The position numbers and the translations under genes were made by a program. The notes beneath the pieces were generated by a model that saw nothing but the letters and a program-made list of their open reading frames with translations, had not been told where the DNA came from and made no database searches. From positions 1 through 61,014 of the IMG/VR virus record IMGVR_UViG_3300043567_000426: a DNA stretch of 61,014 nt. One strand, written 5' to 3'. How positions within the stretch are numbered: position 1 is the stretch's first letter; each line of letters begins with the position of its first letter. Below, one piece after another: positions 1 to 61,014 of the stretch. The stretch comes from a virus.

Positions 1-1188
1 ATTTTATCAAATATACTTTTGTTCCTGGTATGGGTTTTTACGATATCGGTTTACTTCATATTTTGGGTAATACCACAAACGCGGTTACTGCCGCTTGGCG
101 CGAGATGCTCGATGCCGGCATGTATGCTAACTTCCCCGGCTTCCTTATGGCGGATACTGGCGCGCGTCAGAATACGAATATATTCCGCGTTCCGCCGGGC
201 GGTGGGGCGTTAGTTAAGACGGGCGGCATGCCAATCAATCAGGCCATTATGCCATTGCCTTACAAAGAGGCTGGAGCAGGCTTGATGAACCTTGTCACTA
301 ATATTGTTGAGACGGGACAACGCGTTGGCGGCACGGCTGAAGTTGCTGTTGGCGAAGGGCGCAACGATGCGCCTGTCGGAACAACGATTGCGTTGATTGA
401 TCAGGCGACGAAGGTTCTCAACTCAGTTCACAAGCGCATGCATGCTTCGCAGGCAGAAGAGTTCCAGTTGCTTGTGCGCTGCTTCCGCGAACATCCAGAA
501 AGCTTCTGGAAGAAATGCCGCAAGCCATCAATTCAATGGAGCGAAGCTATCTTCATGCAAGCAGTCAATGACTGCGAGCTTGTTCCGCAAGCAGATCCAA
601 ACACGGCAAGTCATACGCAGCGCGTCATGAAGATCATGGCGTTGAAGCAATTGCAGCAACAAAATCCAGCTATGTATGATCCAAAGGCGATCGACATGGC
701 GGCGTTGAAGGCGATGGGCTGGAGCAACCCAGAACAGTTTATGGTTCCGGCTGAGACGCAGCAACAAGTCCCGCCGGAAGTTCAGAAGGCGATGGCAGAG
801 CTTCAGATCTTGAAGCAGGAGGCAGACGCCAAAACGGCGGTAGCCCAGGCTTCGGTCCAGGAGTCGCAAGTCGATGGCCAAGCGCGTCTGATGGATGCAG
901 AGACCAAGCGCATCCTTGCGCAAGCCAAGTTGCAAGAGACGCAAGCTAAAAGCGGCGTAGAAGCGCCACGCGGCGAAGATCCTTGGCGCCAGGTAGACGC
1001 AGAAGCAAAGATGATGGACGCAGAGACGCGCCGCATACTTGCAGAGCTAAAGGCTGCCGATCTTGGTCTTAACGTAGATAAGATGCAGATGGAATCAGAT
1101 CACCGCGAAGCTGATCGCATTCTTGATTCGCATCATCGCGCTGCTGATCGTGCAACGCAGTTGGCTAAAAACATTAATCCTGTTGAGG
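1..1188. repeat. Left copy of the 1,188-bp terminal direct repeat
   Basis: Bases 1-1188 align without gaps to 59827-61014. I count 37 substitutions by eye (about 96.9% identity), concentrated at third codon positions of the portal gene. The repeat shows that the contig is the linear form of a circular or circularly permuted genome of 59,826 bp. Because the copies are not identical, they probably come from two related strains or a mixed population, not from one molecule. Confidence 0.97.
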
Positions 1189-39101: not shown

Positions 39102-39223
39102 TGCATCCAGATCATTTCGCGCTCATCATAAAAATTATGAGAGTTGCGCTGATGATCTTTATTGCAATATATGCATTTAAACTTGGCCGCACTGTTTATT
39201 GGATGATCAGTCAACCGACTTAA
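39098..39223 (+). CDS. Possible 41-residue membrane peptide
   Basis: ATG 39098 overlaps the preceding stop (ATGA). The peptide has a continuous hydrophobic segment ('FALIIKIMRVALMIFIAIYA'). Its 3' end overlaps the convergent GcrA-like gene by 17 bases. Coupling and membrane character support it, but there is no independent evidence. It could be a last late-operon microprotein or chance. Confidence 0.4.
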   Translation: MMHPDHFALIIKIMRVALMIFIAIYAFKLGRTVYWMISQPT

Positions 39224-39689
39224 TTGATTGTTGTCTTGCCGGATAATAGCAAATGGCGCCATGCTCTTTGCAATAAGAGCCGTGCTCCTGCGGCTTGCCG
39301 CAAAAGATCATCTCCGGCGCTTCATCTGGCGATATTGGATAGCGGCATGAAAGGCGAGTTAAACCCATAAGATTGACGCTATGATCCTTTGTGTCTATCA
39401 CTTCTGCCTTAAAAACATTTTTCTTTGGCTTTTTAGGTTTAATTACTTTTGCTTTCTTTTCTTTTTTCTCTTTTGCTATTTTTGCTTTAACTACTTTCTG
39501 CACAAAAACATTATTTCTTAATGCGCGGAATTTCTCAAACGGGCGCTTAAATTCATAACCATTTCTCCTCTGACGATTTATAAAACCTAAAATTGAGCAT
39601 CTGGAAACGCCTAGCATCTCGCCTATAGCTTGGCCCGTCATGCCTTGTTCCCAGAGGTCAATAACTTTTTGCTTTTCGTCCTCAGTCAT
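39207..39689 (-). CDS. gcrA: GcrA-like cell-cycle regulator
   Basis: 160 residues. An N-terminal helix-turn-helix ('LWEQGMTGQAIGEMLGVSRC') is followed by a Lys-rich linker and the GcrA C-terminal region ('MGLTRLSCRYPISPDEAPEM', 'FCGKPQEHGSYCKEH'). GcrA of Caulobacter binds sigma70-RNA polymerase and activates promoters carrying methylated GANTC. A phage copy could redirect host transcription or couple phage expression to methylation state. Its start is preceded by the recurrent leader ATGGAGATATTGATATG. This is one of the best host indicators (Alphaproteobacteria). Confidence 0.85.
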   Translation of the reverse strand: MTEDEKQKVIDLWEQGMTGQAIGEMLGVSRCSILGFINRQRRNGYEFKRPFEKFRALRNNVFVQKVVKAKIAKEKKEKKAKVIKPKKPKKNVFKAEVIDTKDHSVNLMGLTRLSCRYPISPDEAPEMIFCGKPQEHGSYCKEHGAICYYPARQQSIKSVD

Positions 39690-41691: not shown

Positions 41692-41902
41692 ATACCTCAA
41701 TATCAATAATATCATCGCGTTTCGGAGCGCGAACTACACCTATATCATTTTCTGGCATTACGGGCAATCCTTCGCCGCCCCAGCGGTAAAGCGAAGCATA
41801 TGCCGCATGAGGATAGCCAAGATCTGCTTCATAAACCCAGCCCTTATCCTCAAAGACTTTCTGCCGATGATGCGGCACATAAGCATAAACTTTATCAGCC
41901 AT
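41663..41902 (-). CDS. Small protein of the leftward operon
   Basis: 79 residues from 41902 ('MADKVYAYVPHHRQKVFEDK'). It overlaps the DnaA-like gene by 8 bases and the methyltransferase by 29, an arrangement typical of coupled operon genes. The composition is polar, with His and Tyr. No family recognised; the overlaps and conserved leader arrangement support expression. Confidence 0.55.
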   Translation of the reverse strand: MADKVYAYVPHHRQKVFEDKGWVYEADLGYPHAAYASLYRWGGEGLPVMPENDIGVVRAPKRDDIIDIEVYESDKHTRE

Positions 41903-42197
41903 CTTTGCGCTTTCCGCCGCCGTAGACCTTGTAGGACTTGTTATAGTAGTGTCCGTTATGTTGTTCAGCAACTCTATAAATGTGTAAGACAGTAGAATGA
42001 TCGCGCCCAAAAAGACGGCCAATGCGAGCAAAGCTAAAATCTGTTTCTTTCTTGATTCGCCAAATAGCGCGGGTGCGCGCCTGTCGCAAATGAAGATGCG
42101 GGTTTTTTCCGATGATTTCATCTAATGAAACCTTATATTCCGCCGCCACTTCTTTTAATATTTTATGGGCGTAAACTTTAACGGGCTTTTCTTCCAT
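41895..42197 (-). CDS. DnaA domain IV-like DNA-binding protein
   Basis: 100 residues from 42197, with leader GAGAATTGATATG. 'RQARTRAIWRIKKETDFSFA' followed by 'RIGRLFGRDHSTVLH' is the DnaA C-terminal signature (domain IV), which recognises DnaA boxes; the AAA+ part is absent. It could compete with host DnaA or bind the phage origin. It lies in the same operon as GcrA and the methyltransferase. Confidence 0.8.
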   Translation of the reverse strand: MEEKPVKVYAHKILKEVAAEYKVSLDEIIGKNPHLHLRQARTRAIWRIKKETDFSFARIGRLFGRDHSTVLHIYRVAEQHNGHYYNKSYKVYGGGKRKDG

Positions 42198-42238
42198 ATC
42201 AATTCTCAAAGGAAAAGGGCGCTTTTGGCGCCCTAGTA

Positions 42239-43734: not shown

Positions 43735-44523
43735 CTATATTCCCCAAATCTCAAAAGCAGCTTGCGCTGTATCTGGATCGTTAAAGTAAAAGCTATCGCG
43801 CTCTGGCACCACAAATGATGCAAGCTCCGCTGGATCTTTCGATAAAGATAAAAACCGCTGTATCGTTAAGGCGATTCGTTCAACGGCTTTGACATGCTCT
43901 GCAATATTTTCAAGCCTATATGTTGCGCACTTTTTTGGCGTGACGTAGGTAAGGCGGCCATCAATATCCCCACCCGTCGCTGCACAGTAAAGGGCAACTT
44001 GACGCGCATGTTTGTTCGAGATTTTAGACGGTAATGCATGGGTTGTCTTCAGATCGACCAGAATTTTACTTTGTTCCCAAAATAAATCGTAATACCCAAT
44101 GATCGGCACTGACAGCCAATCGACGCGATATTCGATCTTACCTTGGGTCGAGGATGGTGCCCCATACGGCGCAAGCTCTTGCAAGCCGATTTTAACCATC
44201 TCTCCAACAGCGGATTTTTCTTTTTCGGATCGTGGGTCACTAGATAATACGTTAAGGCGCCAAAATTCTTTTTCCGCGACATCGACGCATTCCTTCTCGC
44301 TTGCGCCAGTTGTTAACCCATGAACAATACCTGTCTCTACAGATGTGCCTCTGTGCGCAGCTGCTCCTACCTGTCCTTTTTTCTTGAACACATAGGACAA
44401 TAGAAACGCGGCCGGAGAAGCCTCGTAAAGATTGCATGATGAAGATGATAGGTGTTCTATGCCGTGCGCGGCAAACGCGTCATTAACCACTTCTACCTCA
44501 ATTTCGATTTGATGGCCTAACAT
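43735..44523 (-). CDS. PD-(D/E)XK (Cas4/RecB-type) exonuclease-like protein
   Basis: 262 residues if started at ATG 44523. 'VPIIGYYDLFW' followed by 'ILVDLKTTHALP' is the D...ExK-type core (here D-x-K), and 'HARQVALYCAATG' is the following helix. It would process DNA ends for recombination or replication. A GTG at 44490 has a better ribosome-binding site (GAGG), and a promoter-like TTGACT-17-TATGTT overlaps the ATG, so the protein may really begin 11 residues later. Confidence 0.8.
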   Translation of the reverse strand: MLGHQIEIEVEVVNDAFAAHGIEHLSSSSCNLYEASPAAFLLSYVFKKKGQVGAAAHRGTSVETGIVHGLTTGASEKECVDVAEKEFWRLNVLSSDPRSEKEKSAVGEMVKIGLQELAPYGAPSSTQGKIEYRVDWLSVPIIGYYDLFWEQSKILVDLKTTHALPSKISNKHARQVALYCAATGGDIDGRLTYVTPKKCATYRLENIAEHVKAVERIALTIQRFLSLSKDPAELASFVVPERDSFYFNDPDTAQAAFEIWGI

Positions 44524-44547
44524 AGCCACCCAGATTTTTTCAGTCAA
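44519..44547 (-). promoter_or_regulatory. Candidate leftward promoter of the recombination/regulator operon
   Basis: On the minus strand, GGCGCTTGACT (the same -35 context as the four operator promoters at 52.6-55.2 kb) is followed after 17 bases by TATGTT. It lies just before or across the nuclease start. No palindromic operator is present here, so it may be a constitutive relative of those promoters. The rest of the divergent gap (44524-44770) holds a TATATA-rich stretch and one CAACGCAACG repeat. Confidence 0.4.
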
Positions 44548-44729
44548 GCGCCAAAAAAGTGTTTGACAAAAGATTTTTTCCATTTAACCCTATATACACT
44601 GTGACGTATCGATATTGAATTAGGTGCTCTATGCAAAACACAAGTTCATCATCGCATCTTGTCGAGCCTCGCGGCGTCACTGTGTCGCGTAACGCAAGGT
44701 TGCGTGGCGCGTCGTATCTCAATGCCTTA

Positions 44730-44739
44730 CAACGCAACG
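44730..44739. repeat. Isolated CAACGCAACG repeat upstream of the RAMP-like gene
   Basis: CAACGCAACG at 44730-44739, 31 bases before the start of the next gene and in the same orientation as the large array at 45.4-46.6 kb. The preceding bases contain the same GC-rich words (cctcgcggcg, tgtcgcg) seen between array units. Confidence 0.7.
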
Positions 44740-44770
44740 TTTATCTAACGCAAACTAAATGGAGATTGAA

Positions 44771-45340
44771 ATGAGAATGTGCCGTATTAAAATTAAATCC
44801 ATCACGCCTTATTCAGCATCGCGTCCTGTCGATATTGAGAGAAATAAATCGGAAGGCCATGAGGAATTTGACAAGCGCATTTGGCGCGAGAAAGCGCACT
44901 TCACAAAAGATGAAGATGTTTTTATTCCCGGCGTTTCTTTCAAGCTGGCATTGGATGAAGTTGCATCTATGCTTAATGAAAAGATCAAAGGTAAAGGCAA
45001 TCAGACTTACGGAAAGATTGTTTCCACAGCAACTGTAGCAATGAGTGATCTTTTTATTAGTGTTAAAAAATCAGATCTAAAATCTATCACGATCTTTGCT
45101 AACCTTGATGGCAAGCGCGGCGGAACTGTTCGCGGAAATAGAACTTTCCCTATTGTGCCATCATGGGAAGGATCTGTTGATTTCCAGATCTTTAATGATG
45201 AACTTCCTGCGGAAGTCTTTGAGCGTTATATGACGCAAGCCGGATTGCTTACAGGCGTAGGCCGTGGGCGTCCGGGCATGAAGGCCCCTGCGGGTAATGG
45301 TCGTTTCCAGCCAATATCTTTTGAGTGGTCGGAAATTTAA
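44771..45340 (+). CDS. Conserved phage protein with RAMP-like motifs
   Basis: 189 residues from ATG 44771, with GGAG six bases upstream (an earlier in-frame ATG at 44759 overlaps that site). 'ITPYSASRPVDIERNKSEGH', 'DVFIPGVSFKLALDEVASML', 'KIKGKGNQTYGKI' and 'AGLLTGVGRGRPGMKA' then 'GNGRFQP' define a family widespread in phages. The 'IPG-SFK-AL' and glycine-rich 'GRGRPG...GRF' segments recall RAMP (Cas5/6/7-type) folds, which would imply RNA binding. This is a pattern-based suggestion only. It is flanked on both sides by the CAACGCAACG repeats. Confidence 0.65.
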   Translation: MRMCRIKIKSITPYSASRPVDIERNKSEGHEEFDKRIWREKAHFTKDEDVFIPGVSFKLALDEVASMLNEKIKGKGNQTYGKIVSTATVAMSDLFISVKKSDLKSITIFANLDGKRGGTVRGNRTFPIVPSWEGSVDFQIFNDELPAEVFERYMTQAGLLTGVGRGRPGMKAPAGNGRFQPISFEWSEI

Positions 45341-45386
45341 TATTCGCACCATGACGTTTCGCCACGCGGCGCGACTCTTCTATCTG

Positions 45387-45603
45387 CAACGCAACGATAG
45401 ACAGGAGTTAACATCAAAAATGCTAGAGATCTATTTAAAAAATAGAAAGGTTTAACATCGCCTCGAAACTAATTGCGACGAAGCTAACCGTGGCGACACG
45501 CTGCGCAATACAACGCAACGGTTCATTAGACAATTTATTGTCGCTCTGTGCCGACCCGCGTCGTTACGCATCTTGACGAGTCGCGTAGCAACTCAACGCA
45601 ACA
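45387..45603. repeat. CAACGCAACG repeat array, first block
   Basis: Copies at 45387-45396, 45511-45520 and 45594-45603 (last base variant), spaced 124 and 83 bases. The 45511 copy has the extended core CAACGCAACGGTTCATTA followed three bases on by AATTTATT. The gap 45341-45622 holds no convincing gene; an 11-codon ORF after AGGAG at about 45421 is too short to call. The last copy ends 19 bases before the start of the next gene. Confidence 0.8.
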
Positions 45604-45622
45604 AATCACCAAGGAGAGTAAA

Positions 45623-46114
45623 ATGCCTAGAAGGCCAATGTTTAAGCAATCAGAAGAGACAATAAAAATTATTGCTCTCTTTAAGGAAATGCCGATTGGT
45701 AAGGAAATATCGTATCAAGACGCATCAGCAATCGTAGGGTTTAAGATAACGTCAACGCTTCCAGCATATCAGACAGCAAAGAAAGCTGCGGAGCGGGATC
45801 ATAACGTCGTTGTAGAAAGCATCAGAAGCTTTGGCTTTGTGCGCATTGACGGCACTGGCATGGTCGATCGCGCAAGCCGATTCTTTAAGAAAGTTCGCAA
45901 GGGCTCGCGCCGGGAGGCCCATGTGCAGGAAATCGCCATAACCACAAATCTCACGCGCGGTCAAATGATAACCGCGACTGAGCAGCTATCGCGCTTACGA
46001 ATATTAGAGACGACCGCATCAAGAGTTAAGTCTAGTAAAAACAAAGACGATGATGCGCTAAATAATTTTGTGTTTGACAATAGAGAAGCTTTGAAGGCTC
46101 TATTGACGAAATAA
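45623..46114 (+). CDS. Conserved phage protein, possibly DNA-binding
   Basis: 163 residues from ATG 45623 with AAGGAGAG upstream. 'EMPIGKEISYQDASAIVGFK' and 'AAERDHNVVVESIRSFGFVR' followed by 'IDGTGMVDRASRFFKKVRKG' belong to a phage family of unknown function, with a basic central region and possible winged-helix character. It sits between two blocks of the repeat array and is the obvious candidate partner for those repeats, but this is inference. Confidence 0.6.
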   Translation: MPRRPMFKQSEETIKIIALFKEMPIGKEISYQDASAIVGFKITSTLPAYQTAKKAAERDHNVVVESIRSFGFVRIDGTGMVDRASRFFKKVRKGSRREAHVQEIAITTNLTRGQMITATEQLSRLRILETTASRVKSSKNKDDDALNNFVFDNREALKALLTK

Positions 46115-46193
46115 TGCGGGACGCTGCTCGACGCTTTGCCGCGCGGCGCTTCTTGGCGACTTGTCGCTAATCGTAACGCCCGATTCTGCAACT

Positions 46194-46595
46194 CAACGCA
46201 ACGGTTCATTAGATGATTTACTACCGCAACGCTACACGCCTAGTCTTCCTGCAACGCTCTGCTCCGCATCTTAGCGCGCCTCAGTGTCACGCAACACAAC
46301 GCAACGGTTTATTTGTCAATTTACCCTCGCGGCTCATCGCACTACCCCTCAACGCAACGCAGGGTGGCGCTCTGCAACTCAACGCAACGGTTCATTATGC
46401 AATTTATTCACGCCGCTAATCGCATTGTGCCTCAACGCACTGCGTCGTGTCGCCGTGCAACTCAACGCAACGGTTCATTATGAAATTTATCTCCGTCACG
46501 CTTGGCTCCTCGCCGTATTGCATCGTTTCTCAGCATGGCGCACAGTCACGCACAGCACGGCTCCTTGACGCTACGCCCAGCAACTCAACGCAACG
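46194..46595. repeat. CAACGCAACG repeat array, main block
   Basis: Copies start at 46194, 46297, 46350, 46380, 46463 and 46586. Leaving out the solitary 46350 copy, the spacings are 103, 83, 83 and 123 bases. Four copies extend as CAACGCAACGGTT-Y-ATT followed by an AATTTAT/ATTTAC element. Sequences between copies are GC-rich and not conserved. The gap 46115-46604 (490 bases) contains no supported gene. All copies have the same orientation, and the last ends 9 bases before the RuvC-type gene. Confidence 0.85.
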
Positions 46596-46604
46596 GAATA
46601 TTAA

Positions 46605-47060
46605 ATGACTGAAGCATGCATCATGGGAATAGATCCCGGCGTCTCTGGCGCCGTGGCATTTTATTTTCCAGATTACCCTAATAGAATTTCGGTATATGAT
46701 GCGCCATCGGTAGGGAAAGAAATTAATGCTCCAGCACTTGCGCAGCTTATTAAACAATATAGCCCAACAATTTGTTATATCGAATCAGTCAACGCAATGC
46801 CAAAGCAAGGCGTCACAAGCAGCTTCAACTTCGGACAAGCATATGGCTGCGTTCGAGGAGTGGTTGCAGCGTGTGGAGTTCCGACTGTTTTGGTAAGCCC
46901 ACGAAAGTGGAAAAGCTTTTTTGCTTTGGATTCGGATAAAGAAAAATCCAGAAGACTAGCAATAATGAAATGGCCTGATGGCGGTCATTTTAACAGAAAG
47001 AAAGATGACGGCCGCGCGGAAGCGGCCTTGATTGCTTTATATGGGAGCAAACAGTTATGA
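46605..47060 (+). CDS. RuvC-like Holliday-junction resolvase
   Basis: 151 residues. 'IMGIDPGVSGAVAFYF' (D10), 'ICYIESVNAMP' (E60) and 'KKDDGRAEAALIALYG' (D134/D135) give the acidic active site of phage RuvC-type nucleases. It would resolve branched replication intermediates before packaging. Its ATG follows immediately after the repeat array with no strong ribosome-binding site, which is unusual. It overlaps the next gene by 4 bases. Confidence 0.88.
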   Translation: MTEACIMGIDPGVSGAVAFYFPDYPNRISVYDAPSVGKEINAPALAQLIKQYSPTICYIESVNAMPKQGVTSSFNFGQAYGCVRGVVAACGVPTVLVSPRKWKSFFALDSDKEKSRRLAIMKWPDGGHFNRKKDDGRAEAALIALYGSKQL

Positions 47061-47362
47061 GTGATTTTACTAATCTTTTAGAAAAATTGCGCAGCGAGCA
47101 TAACGACCCTTGGCAAGTAAATCCTGCCGCAAAGATAGCGGCCGACGCTATTGAATGGCTGGTAAAAGAAATCAATAATTTACGCGAAATGAGCGTTGCA
47201 GAAGAAGTTTTAGCAAATCAAATTAGAAAAGAAATTAGAGAAGATGAGCGTGAGCGTTGCGCAAAAATTGCGGAGCAGTTTTTATCAAATAACGAGCCGG
47301 TGCGCTTGACCGCAAGCAGTATAGCTGCCGCTATTAGGGAGAGAAGTAATGGGACTATTTGA
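47057..47362 (+). CDS. Small helical phage protein
   Basis: 101 residues. 'EIREDERERCAKIAEQFL' and the terminal 'ASSIAAAIRERSNG' match a common short phage protein with an 'ERERCAKIAE' helix and unknown role. It is coupled to RuvC (ATGA) and overlaps the next gene by 14 bases. Confidence 0.7.
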   Translation: MSDFTNLLEKLRSEHNDPWQVNPAAKIAADAIEWLVKEINNLREMSVAEEVLANQIRKEIREDERERCAKIAEQFLSNNEPVRLTASSIAAAIRERSNGTI

Positions 47363-47729
47363 CAGCCCTTGGCTTAGTAAAGAAGATCATGAGCGGCTTG
47401 TCCATCTCAATCTTATTGGCCAAGTCAATATGCTTAATCTGCATAACTACGAGCTACAGGCTAAATTGGAAATGGCGCGTGGTAGGATAGTAGAACTAGA
47501 ACATCAACTGAAAGTTGAATGTGACACCTATCTCTGGAATCGCAAACTAATGTCGAGACGCATTGCGTCCTTACAGGGATGGATGAAGAAATTATTCAAA
47601 TACGGCAGTTCGTCGGAAGCAATACGCAATCAAATGACAATGACGACAGAGATACCCGACACATTGATGCGGGAAGGTGAGGATATTTTAATTGAAATAA
47701 CGCCAGCATTGGAGAACGGTAAAGAATAA
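47349..47729 (+). CDS. Small coiled-coil protein
   Basis: 126 residues, with a coiled coil at about residues 20-60 ('NYELQAKLEMARGRIVELEH') and an acidic C-terminus. No family recognised. It is the last gene of the RuvC operon and is followed by a strong hairpin. Confidence 0.6.
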   Translation: MGLFDSPWLSKEDHERLVHLNLIGQVNMLNLHNYELQAKLEMARGRIVELEHQLKVECDTYLWNRKLMSRRIASLQGWMKKLFKYGSSSEAIRNQMTMTTEIPDTLMREGEDILIEITPALENGKE

Positions 47730-58673: not shown

Positions 58674-61014
58674 ATGCCGATGACGCCGGGCTTGCCCTAC
58701 AATATTCGTCAAGAGCAGCAAGCACCGGCAGGGCTTGGCGCCGCTGAAGATCTGATGGTTGAGATTGAAGAGGGGCCGGACAAGCCAAAGACTGATGAGA
58801 GCGGCAAGATCTTAACGATTGAGCATGATGACGGCTCCATCACGGTATCGCTTGATGGCCGTTCGCTTGATGGCGATTCAGATGCCGCTCGCGCAGAAGA
58901 GTGGTTTGGCAATCTCGTTGAAGACATAGACCAAGCAACGCTTGGCCGCATTGCAGAAGATCTGCTTCGCGGCGTTCGCGATGACTTAGATAGCAGGCAG
59001 GATTGGATTGAAGACCGCGCCCAAGGCATGAAGCTTTTGGGCTTGAAGGTTGAGATACCAGGTTTGCAGGGCGCCGTTGACGGTGCGCCTGTTGAAGGCA
59101 TGAGCCGCGTTCGCCATCCATTGCTACTTGAAGCGGTGCTCCGCTTCCAAGCCAATGCGCGCAGCGAGTTGCTTCCAACTGACGGTCCTGTGAAGGTTCG
59201 CGATGATGCGGATAAAGATTCGCCAGAGCAGCAACAGCTTGCTGATGCGTTGGAGAACGATCTTAATCAGTATCTGACGGCGGTAGCCAAAGAATATTAT
59301 CCTGATACTGACCGCATGCTTTTCATGCTTGGCTTTGGCGGCACGGCCTTCAAAAAAGTTTACTTCTGCCCATTGCGCGGCAGACCTGTAAGCGAGACGG
59401 TCGATGCTGATGACTTGATCGTTAACAATGCGGCGACGACGCTAGACGACGCAAAGCGCATAACGCATCGCGTCTTCATGCGCCCGTCAACTGTGCGCAG
59501 ATTGCAGATCCTTGGCGTTTATCGCGACATTGATCTGACAACGCCAAATCAATATCAGGCCGATGAGGTGCAACGCCAGAAGGCAGACGTTCAAGGTATC
59601 TCGATTGATTCGATGAACCCGGACGATCGCGACCGGGAGATCTATGAGATTTATTGTGAGCTCGACATACCGGGCTTCGAGCACAAATATAAGGGGAAAG
59701 AAACTGGCCTCGAAATTCCGTATCGCGTAACGATCGATGTGAGCTCGCGAGAGATCCTCTCAATAGTGAGGAACTACGATGAGCCAACGGGAGAAGAAGG
59801 CGACGAACTGCCTGAGTCCAGAAACAATTTTATCAAATATACTTTTGTTCCTGGTATGGGTTTTTACGATATCGGTTTACTTCATATTTTGGGTAATACC
59901 ACAAACGCGGTTACTGCCGCTTGGCGCGAGATGCTCGATGCCGGCATGTATGCGAACTTCCCCGGCTTCCTTATGGCGGATACTGGCGCGCGTCAGAATA
60001 CGAATATATTCCGCGTTCCGCCGGGCGGTGGGGCGCTAGTTAAAACGGGCGGCATGCCAATCAATCAGGCCATTATGCCCTTGCCTTACAAAGAGGCTGG
60101 CGCAGGCTTGATGAACCTTGTCACCAATATTGTTGAGACGGGCCAGCGCGTTGGCGGCACGGCTGAAGTTGCTGTTGGCGAAGGGCGCAATGATGCGCCT
60201 GTCGGAACAACGATTGCGTTGATTGATCAGGCGACGAAGGTTCTCAACTCAGTTCACAAGCGCATGCATGCTTCGCAGGCAGAAGAGTTCCAGTTGCTTG
60301 TGCGTTGCTTTCGCGAACACCCAGATAGCTTCTGGAAGAAATGCCGCAAGCCATCAATTCAATGGAGCGAGGCGATCTTCATGCAAGCAGTCAATGACTG
60401 CGAGCTTGTTCCGCAAGCAGACCCAAACACCGCAAGCCATACGCAGCGCGTCATGAAGATCATGGCGTTGAAGCAATTGCAGCAACAAAACCCAGCCATG
60501 TATGATCCAAAGGCGATCGACATGGCGGCATTGAAGGCGATGGGCTGGAGCAACCCAGAACAGTTTATGGTTCCGGCTGAGACGCAGCAACAAGTCCCGC
60601 CGGAAGTCCAGAAGGCGATGGCGGAGCTTCAGATCTTGAAGCAGGAGGCAGACGCCAAGACGGCGGTTGCCCAGGCTTCGGTCCAGGAGTCGCAAGTCGA
60701 TGGCCAAGCGCGCCTGATGGACGCAGAGACCAAGCGCATCCTTGCGCAGGCGAAGCTGCAAGAGACGCAAGCCAAAAGCGGCGTAGAAGCGCCACGCGGC
60801 GAAGACCCTTGGCGCCAAGTAGACGCAGAAGCACAGATGATGGACGCAGAGACGCGCCGCATACTTGCAGAGTTAAAGGCTGCTGATCTTGGTCTTAACG
60901 TAGATAAGATGCAGATGGAATCAGATCATCGCGAAGCTGATCGCATTCTTGATTCGCATCATCGCGCTGCTGATCGTGCAACGCAGTTGGCTAAAAACAT
61001 TAATCCTGTTGAGG
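58674..61014 (+). CDS. Portal protein, N-terminal 780 codons (runs off the window)
   Basis: Starts 'MPMTPGLPYNIRQEQQAPAG' with AAGGAT upstream, and stays open to the last base. N-terminal features 'RSLDGDSDAARAEEWFGNLV', 'SRQDWIEDRAQGMKLLGLKV' and 'DTDRMLFMLGFGGTAFKKVY' are typical of P22-like portals (wing and stem regions). The last 1,188 bases duplicate the start of the window, where the stop codon lies at 1194-1196. Full length is about 782 residues. Confidence 0.95.
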   Translation, partial: MPMTPGLPYNIRQEQQAPAGLGAAEDLMVEIEEGPDKPKTDESGKILTIEHDDGSITVSLDGRSLDGDSDAARAEEWFGNLVEDIDQATLGRIAEDLLRGVRDDLDSRQDWIEDRAQGMKLLGLKVEIPGLQGAVDGAPVEGMSRVRHPLLLEAVLRFQANARSELLPTDGPVKVRDDADKDSPEQQQLADALENDLNQYLTAVAKEYYPDTDRMLFMLGFGGTAFKKVYFCPLRGRPVSETVDADDLIVNNAATTLDDAKRITHRVFMRPSTVRRLQILGVYRDIDLTTPNQYQADEVQRQKADVQGISIDSMNPDDRDREIYEIYCELDIPGFEHKYKGKETGLEIPYRVTIDVSSREILSIVRNYDEPTGEEGDELPESRNNFIKYTFVPGMGFYDIGLLHILGNTTNAVTAAWREMLDAGMYANFPGFLMADTGARQNTNIFRVPPGGGALVKTGGMPINQAIMPLPYKEAGAGLMNLVTNIVETGQRVGGTAEVAVGEGRNDAPVGTTIALIDQATKVLNSVHKRMHASQAEEFQLLVRCFREHPDSFWKKCRKPSIQWSEAIFMQAVNDCELVPQADPNTASHTQRVMKIMALKQLQQQNPAMYDPKAIDMAALKAMGWSNPEQFMVPAETQQQVPPEVQKAMAELQILKQEADAKTAVAQASVQESQVDGQARLMDAETKRILAQAKLQETQAKSGVEAPRGEDPWRQVDAEAQMMDAETRRILAELKAADLGLNVDKMQMESDHREADRILDSHHRAADRATQLAKNINPVE
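59827..61014. repeat. Right copy of the 1,188-bp terminal direct repeat
   Basis: Partner of 1-1188 with 37 substitutions and no indels. By reading the codons I find only two amino-acid changes (Glu to Asp in 'HPESFW' and Lys to Gln in 'EAKMMD'). Both copies therefore look selected as functional portal sequence. Confidence 0.97.

What the first reader, a model, noticed from the sequence alone, without database searches (positions are those of the whole stretch)
44771..45340. RAMP-like unknown protein embedded in the repeat array
'FIPGVSFKLAL' and the glycine-rich 'GVGRGRPG...GRF' recall RAMP proteins of CRISPR effector complexes. With repeats on both sides and a RuvC-type nuclease nearby, the cluster is at least formally like an RNA-guided or repeat-binding system. 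It carries no Cas1, Cas2 or effector nuclease, so it would be a new type if functional.
Basis: inference. Interest (0 to 1): 0.7.

Follow-up and report, generated by a model that had tools for sequence, protein, structure and literature searches.

The report
Phage VIPR guide system, altered code
A phage carries a small protein shaped like a CRISPR effector subunit beside nine RNA-guide-like tracts written in five-letter units, which makes it a divergent member of the recently described VIPR systems, apparently with a changed unit (CGY plus two free letters instead of GGY plus two).

Summary
The 189-aa protein at 44771-45340 has a RAMP fold: its model's best PDB matches are type VII Cas7 and Csm3 (Foldseek E 8.4e-7; VIA Z 12.0). 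It is a remote member of phrog_4652, which I identify with Vipr of the VIPR systems reported in 2026 (PMC13142463). The second gene (45623-46114) matches the accessory Vap family. The 'repeats' are nine tracts of pentamers in one frame: three near-constant letters, two free, then a conserved 3' end. That is the layout of vrRNAs, whose free pairs specify DNA targets non-contiguously. A sister contig with 99% identical Vipr has gained and lost whole tracts, as expected of guides. The constant triplet is CGY, not the published GGY; 82 of 83 other loci have GGY tracts. This Vipr is only 18-29% identical to the others aligned. The nearest named phage lacks the module. No target was found for the four guides scanned. 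The RuvC-type gene is an ordinary phage resolvase. Verdict: a real, divergent VIPR system, a new variant of a known kind. In passing: some VIPR arrays, mostly of actinophages, are punctuated by tRNA-like elements.

The parts
44771..45340 (+). vipr: RAMP-fold protein, 189 aa (the finding)
   Evidence: phrog_4652 E 1.9e-5; AlphaFold2 model pLDDT 79.6, pTM 0.76; PDB matches type VII Cas7 and Csm3
45623..46114 (+). vap: accessory protein, 163 aa, predicted winged helix plus long helices
   Evidence: 24.6 bits, E 9.4e-10 (database of one sequence) to an HMM of 83 downstream genes of other Vipr loci; model pLDDT 85.6; winged-helix domains, Z up to 9.0 over residues 3-78
44653..44747 (+). vrRNA tract v1 (upstream of vipr), 17 pentamer units incl. 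the conserved last ones
45345..45402 (+). vrRNA tract v2, 10 units
45459..45528 (+). vrRNA tract v3, 12 units, tail CGGTTCATTA
45537..45611 (+). vrRNA tract v4, 13 units
46122..46211 (+). vrRNA tract v5, 16 units (no aligned counterpart in sister contig L002)
46220..46314 (+). vrRNA tract v6, 17 units
46323..46397 (+). vrRNA tract v7, 13 units
46406..46480 (+). vrRNA tract v8, 13 units (missing in sister contig L002)
46489..46603 (+). vrRNA tract v9, 21 units

Best explanation
The locus is a phage VIPR system of a divergent kind. Vipr (44771-45340) is a RAMP protein. Several copies are inferred to line up on each vrRNA, one per pentamer. The near-constant CGY triplet of each pentamer would be held by the protein, and the two free letters (NN) would base-pair with a double-stranded DNA target with a skipped base between pairs, as shown for the published GGY/NN systems. 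Binding would repress genes of competing phages, satellites or prophages. Vap, a predicted winged-helix protein, is inferred to help DNA binding. The nine tracts are the replaceable guides. Shown here: RAMP fold (by prediction); Vap homology; pentamer frame with three constrained and two free letters; conserved 3' ends; gain and loss of whole tracts between sister phages; absence of the module from the nearest named relative. Inferred from the published relatives: transcription, RNA binding, the 1-nt skip rule, repression, and the kind of target. The link between the changed triplet (CGY for GGY) and the changes in the protein is my inference.
For: RAMP fold: Foldseek against the PDB gives 66 matches at E 0.001 or less, and all 50 rows shown are from CRISPR effector complexes or RAMP fusions (best 8yhe_J, type VII, E 8.4e-7); VIA Z 12.0 to Csm3 6ifk_E, 162 residues, rmsd 3.4. 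Family: phrog_4652 E 1.9e-5; a weak hit (E 0.8) to Gordonia phage Trine gp41, which belongs to phrog_4652 at 5e-62 and whose relatives include a gene of phage SUSP1, the experimental system of PMC13142463. Vap. Code: 125 units (9 window tracts plus 2 of L002, last three units of each left out) have entropies of 1.02, 1.11, 1.39, 1.97 and 1.99 bits at positions 1-5; C is 99/125 at position 1, G 89/125 at position 2, C or T 107/125 at position 3; the lowest phase entropy in 2000 shuffles was 1.73. Cross-validated matrix scan. Other loci: 82 of 83 have an 8-unit GGYNN run (at least 20 of 24 constant letters) near vipr on its strand, 6 of 83 on the opposite strand, 2 of 83 in the rest of the locus (the rest is usually shorter than the near part). 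Turnover: L002, with Vipr 98.9% identical, shares seven tracts with 2 differences in 495 letters, both in constant positions, lacks v8, and has other tracts where the window has v5. Accessory nature: phage ct7L0027 (major capsid protein 89% identical) has no Vipr or Vap match above noise and no pentamer array.
Against: No target was found: four guides (v1, v5, v6, v9), each tested with one exact 8-unit seed in IMG/VR, gave 19, 5, 18 and 5 places, none of which extends convincingly; five guides were not scanned there. No self-target stands out (36 guide-skip tests against 40 shuffles each; one, v1 at skip 3, beat all 40, about what 36 tests give). The constant triplet differs from GGY. The 3' tail shows no structure beyond shuffles, whereas the published SUSP1 clade has a structured tail. 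Vipr identity to the other family members is only 18-29%, and tblastn in named phages and plasmids finds no significant relative. There are no RNA data. The tracts were delimited by me, in a frame anchored on the conserved CGCAAC.
Confidence: 0.92

Rival explanations
1. The pentamer tracts are protein-binding DNA repeats (iterons or operators) for replication or transcription control, bound by Vap or by the phage's DnaA-like and GcrA-like proteins; Vipr is incidental.
For: The cluster lies in the replication module beside a resolvase, a DnaA-C-like gene and a primase-helicase. The predicted Vap fold contains a winged helix. Five bases is about half a DNA turn.
Against: Two of five positions are free (1.97 and 1.99 bits) while three are constrained; iterons are expected to be near-identical copies. 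The same layout flanks vipr-vap pairs of other phages in quite different gene neighbourhoods (tail genes in L012 and L015, repressor and integrase genes in L016) and is on the vipr strand. Published relatives are transcribed and bound by Vipr (PMC13142463).
Confidence: 0.04
2. A decayed VIPR: the protein has lost its partner code, the tracts drift, and the CGY triplet is erosion of GGY.
For: Low identity to the family; no target found; irregular constant letters (99/125, 89/125, 107/125).
Against: Erosion would not give one dominant replacement letter (C 99, G 9 of 125 at position 1). Vipr and Vap frames are open, Vipr is 99% conserved between contigs, and shared tracts differ by 2 of 495 letters from the sister contig. 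Tracts are still gained and lost as whole units.
Confidence: 0.04

Closest known systems
VIPR systems (Vipr + Vap + vrRNA), PMC13142463, especially the type II SUSP1 and P. fulva clades
   Same: Small single RAMP protein; one adjacent accessory gene predicted to bind DNA; tracts of pentamers with a constrained triplet and a free dinucleotide; conserved 3' end; tracts outside and around the genes; phage-encoded
   Different: Constant triplet CGY instead of GGY; tail apparently unstructured; Vipr lacks the N-terminal LLMH..LANPLDP segment and has insertions after about residue 67 and in the Gly-rich loop; 18-29% identity to the aligned members. The paper allows 'a related consensus' in a supplementary figure that I could not read.
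Csm3 / Cas7 backbone subunits of CRISPR type III and type VII effectors
   Same: RAMP fold over the whole protein, Gly-rich loop, inferred oligomer on a periodic RNA
   Different: 9-18% sequence identity in the fold alignments; unit of five rather than six nucleotides (the paper names every sixth position for class 1 CRISPR); no other Cas protein seen in the ORFs scanned; arrays are not CRISPR repeats and spacers
phrog_4652 (PHROGs, unknown function)
   Same: Sequence family match, E 1.9e-5
   Different: Remote member; the family's typical tracts are GGYNN

Membership tests
VIPR | Minimal RAMP-fold Vipr of about 20 kDa | tested here: met
   189 aa
VIPR | Adjacent vap gene | tested here: met
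   Window gene 45623-46114 matches the Vap HMM (24.6 bits); predicted winged helix
VIPR | Tandem pentamers: constrained triplet alternating with a hypervariable dinucleotide | tested here: met
   Entropies 1.02/1.11/1.39 against 1.97/1.99 bits
VIPR | The triplet is GGY (or a related consensus) | tested here: inconclusive
   It is CGY here; whether that is among the paper's 'related consensus' sequences could not be read
VIPR | 9-16 units per vrRNA | tested here: inconclusive
   10-21 units with the conserved last three, 7-18 without; the ends of the RNAs are not known
VIPR | Invariable 3' tail after the tract | tested here: met
   AACGCAAC core in 9 of 9 tracts; CGGTTCATTA in v3, v5, v7, v8, variants in the others
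VIPR | Structured tail (reported for the SUSP1 clade) | tested here: not met
   Folds no better than shuffles; the main text reports it for the SUSP1 clade and does not make it a requirement for all types
VIPR | vrRNA transcribed and bound by Vipr | not testable with these tools
   -
VIPR | DNA target read with a 1-nt skip | tested here: inconclusive
   4 of 9 guides scanned in IMG/VR with one seed each, no convincing target
CRISPR-Cas class 1 | Cas1/Cas2 or several Cas effector subunits | tested here: inconclusive
   None among the 15 window ORFs scanned in Pfam; the PD-(D/E)XK gene matches a PHROG labelled 'CRISPR/Cas system associated' but not Cas1 or Cas2; not every ORF was scanned
CRISPR-Cas class 1 | CRISPR array of near-identical repeats with unrelated spacers | tested here: not met
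   The 'spacers' are themselves pentamer-periodic
Iteron-type replication origin | Near-identical repeated binding sites | tested here: not met
   Two of five positions are free

The most novel reading that the evidence does not exclude
A VIPR lineage with an altered, possibly orthogonal guide code: a Vipr that reads CGY/NN pentamers, with the change in the first constant letter tied to loss of the N-terminal MH-containing segment and to insertions after residue 67 and in the Gly-rich loop. It would show that the protein-read part of the noncontiguous code can evolve, and that VIPR codes can be mutually exclusive in one cell.
Probability: 0.45. Interest if true: 0.75.

Novelty: new variant of a known kind. 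Interest (0 to 1): 0.62.

Why it matters
VIPR is, on its authors' account, a DNA-recognition system related to the ancestors of CRISPR effectors, reported only in 2026. A member with a different constant triplet, and with sister phages that share most guides and differ in a few, gives a natural test of which letters the protein reads and which letters the target reads. If the CGY code is exclusive, two VIPR systems could be programmed independently in one cell.

Tried and rejected
Targets: exact 8-unit seeds with a 1-nt skip for v9, v6, v5 and v1 in IMG/VR gave 5, 18, 5 and 19 places; outside the seeds the matches are at about chance level. The best, L115 for v6, matches ten consecutive units but sits in a phage whose proteins look Gram-positive to me, and with 18 places a two-unit extension by chance is not rare; rejected. 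Self-targets at skips 0-3: none convincing. Guides against the other loci then held: no high score.

Relatives: the 3' end pattern occurs only in the same three contigs. A profile scan of IMG/VR found nothing between 29% and 99% identity. Two genome-contig scans found no relative; the second used a single short pattern. Plasmids and phages by tblastn: nothing significant. NCBIfam and PADLOC have no model for either protein. Rfam has no match in 44000-47500, so no hammerhead was found there. Promoter and terminator consensus scans were at shuffle level.

Considered and rejected: CRISPR array (spacers are periodic); iterons; coding sequence (the ORFs inside the tracts are unsupported); the RuvC-type gene as the system's nuclease (it is a phage resolvase family).

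Full report
What was claimed and what is there. The window is a 61,014-base virus record.

The protein. Pfam, the PDB by sequence, NCBIfam and PADLOC give nothing significant. PHROGs gives phrog_4652, unknown function, E 1.9e-5. A sub-threshold tblastn hit, Gordonia phage Trine gp41 (E 0.8), proved to be a strong member of phrog_4652 (E 5e-62), with relatives in 135 phage records. An alignment of 54 sequences (the window, L002 and 52 of the 80 loci that one search kept out of 453 confirmed) gave an AlphaFold2 model with pLDDT 79.6 and pTM 0.76; residues 109-116, 118-120 and 167-172 are below 50. All 50 Foldseek rows shown are from CRISPR effector complexes or RAMP fusions, with TM-scores (by query length) of 0.41-0.56. 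VIA gives Z 12.0 to Csm3. In the viral structure library, 3 of 143 matches have E 0.001 or less, one named 'Cas system-associated RAMP superfamily protein'. So the RAMP reading is right.

The module. In six of the seven annotated phages read, the phrog_4652 gene is directly followed by a second gene of 146-188 aa; in the seventh, Trine, the annotated start of the downstream gene lies upstream of an array, which its first part would read through. An HMM of the seven finds 83 of 88 candidates, those seven phages included, and an HMM of the 83 finds the window's second gene with 24.6 bits. Its model shows an N-terminal winged helix and long helices (Foldseek has no match at 0.001 or less, and Z of 7-9 is modest).

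The repeats. Around these pairs lie pentamer tracts, plain to see as GGYNN in Mycobacterium, Gordonia, Pseudomonas and Felixounavirus-type phages. In 82 of 83 IMG/VR loci a GGYNN run lies near vipr on its strand; the one miss, L095, ends 287 bases after the match. In the window, with a frame fixed by the conserved CGCAAC, the units read CGY plus NN: C 99/125, G 89/125 (T 26), C or T 107/125, then two positions at 1.97 and 1.99 bits. Matrices learned on one part of the tracts recover the other. Position 1 is mostly G in 83 of the 88 loci with a good run; of the five exceptions one is the window and the other four have GGY runs of 22-24 of 24 letters near vipr in the other test.

Identification. 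A paper search found PMC13142463. I read its whole main text; its supplements could not be read. It describes VIPR: a RAMP-fold Vipr, a Vap, and vrRNAs of 9-16 pentamers in which GGY alternates with free NN, with a conserved 3' tail, reading DNA with one skipped base per pair, mostly in phages and proviruses and directed at competitors. Its experimental phage SUSP1 carries a phrog_4652-type gene. I conclude that phrog_4652 is Vipr; that equation is mine. Two further searches found no other paper on it.

Guide turnover. Contigs L002 and L003 have Vipr 98.9% identical to the window's. Compared tract by tract, L002 shares seven tracts with the window (2 differences in 495 letters, both at constant positions), lacks v8, and carries other tracts where the window has v5; the alignments of L003 agree with those of L002. 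L004 is identical to the window over this region. The phage ct7L0027, with a major capsid protein 89% identical and terminase 55%, has no such module. This fits an accessory module with exchangeable guides.

How it probably works, and what is not shown. See Best explanation. Transcription, RNA binding, the skip rule and the kind of target are carried over from the published systems. Four of nine guides were tested for targets in IMG/VR with exact seeds and none was found. That is weak evidence against, since the scan demands eight perfect units and the right competitor in the collection.

What is new. The category is known. The triplet CGY, the apparently unstructured tail, the missing N-terminal segment and the insertions make this a divergent member; the closest other sequences found, sister contigs apart, are 29% identical or less. 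Whether the authors already list such a consensus is unknown to me.

A side result. In 14 of 90 vipr loci (seven annotated phages plus 83 IMG/VR loci; L006 and L047 look like the same phage), mostly actinophages where the host is named, a tRNA T-arm motif occurs 26 times near vipr on its strand, once near it on the other strand, and five times elsewhere in about half as many bases. I examined 21 of the 26; left out were L006's third, the three of L047 and the one of L062. Of the 21, 20 have an acceptor-like stem of at least 5 pairs across a 10-13-nt linker, against a mean of 4.0 and a maximum of 11 in 500 shuffles of the 3' strands. The T-stem is 99% paired, with 28 double changes against 7.9 expected from shuffles; related copies are counted apart in both. 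Most linkers contain a GG that could play the part of the D-loop (my reading). Several lie between tracts, so RNase P and tRNA 3' processing could release the vrRNAs (inference). ARAGORN calls two tRNAs without a proper anticodon in the 12 loci given, and Rfam none in four. The VIPR main text mentions hammerhead-interspersed arrays but has no occurrence of 'tRNA-like'.

Noticed in passing
L014 1650-3144, L006 6410-6686, L012 4740-6382, L030 2604-2940 and others: VIPR arrays of actinophages and some metagenome phages are punctuated by tRNA-like elements (acceptor stem, linker with GG, T-arm; no anticodon arm), with strong covariation. They could be processing sites for RNase P.
   Followed up: partly
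L017 (Escherichia phage wV8) 4703-4807 and 6096-6200: The annotated 'DR_4' repeats flank the vipr-vap pair and lie within or beside its pentamer arrays, so they look like vrRNA tails or leaders.
   Followed up: partly
window 1-1188 and 59827-61014: The contig's ends are 96.9% identical over 1188 bases: an imperfect terminal overlap, perhaps a strain mixture or circular permutation.
   Followed up: partly
L002 6640-6792; window about 45424-45456: The sister contig has a 46-50-codon ORF between tracts v2 and v3; the window keeps only about 11 codons of its end.
   Followed up: no
window 39207-39689 and 41895-42209: GcrA-like (E 2.4e-18) and DnaA C-terminal-like (E 1.6e-15) genes. GcrA suggests an alphaproteobacterial host (recalled knowledge).
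   Followed up: no
window 43735-44583: A PD-(D/E)XK nuclease gene is divergently placed next to the module. A 'Cas4 family exonuclease' gene lies near the vipr-vap pair in prophiBWHA-1. Probably a phage recombination gene.
   Followed up: no
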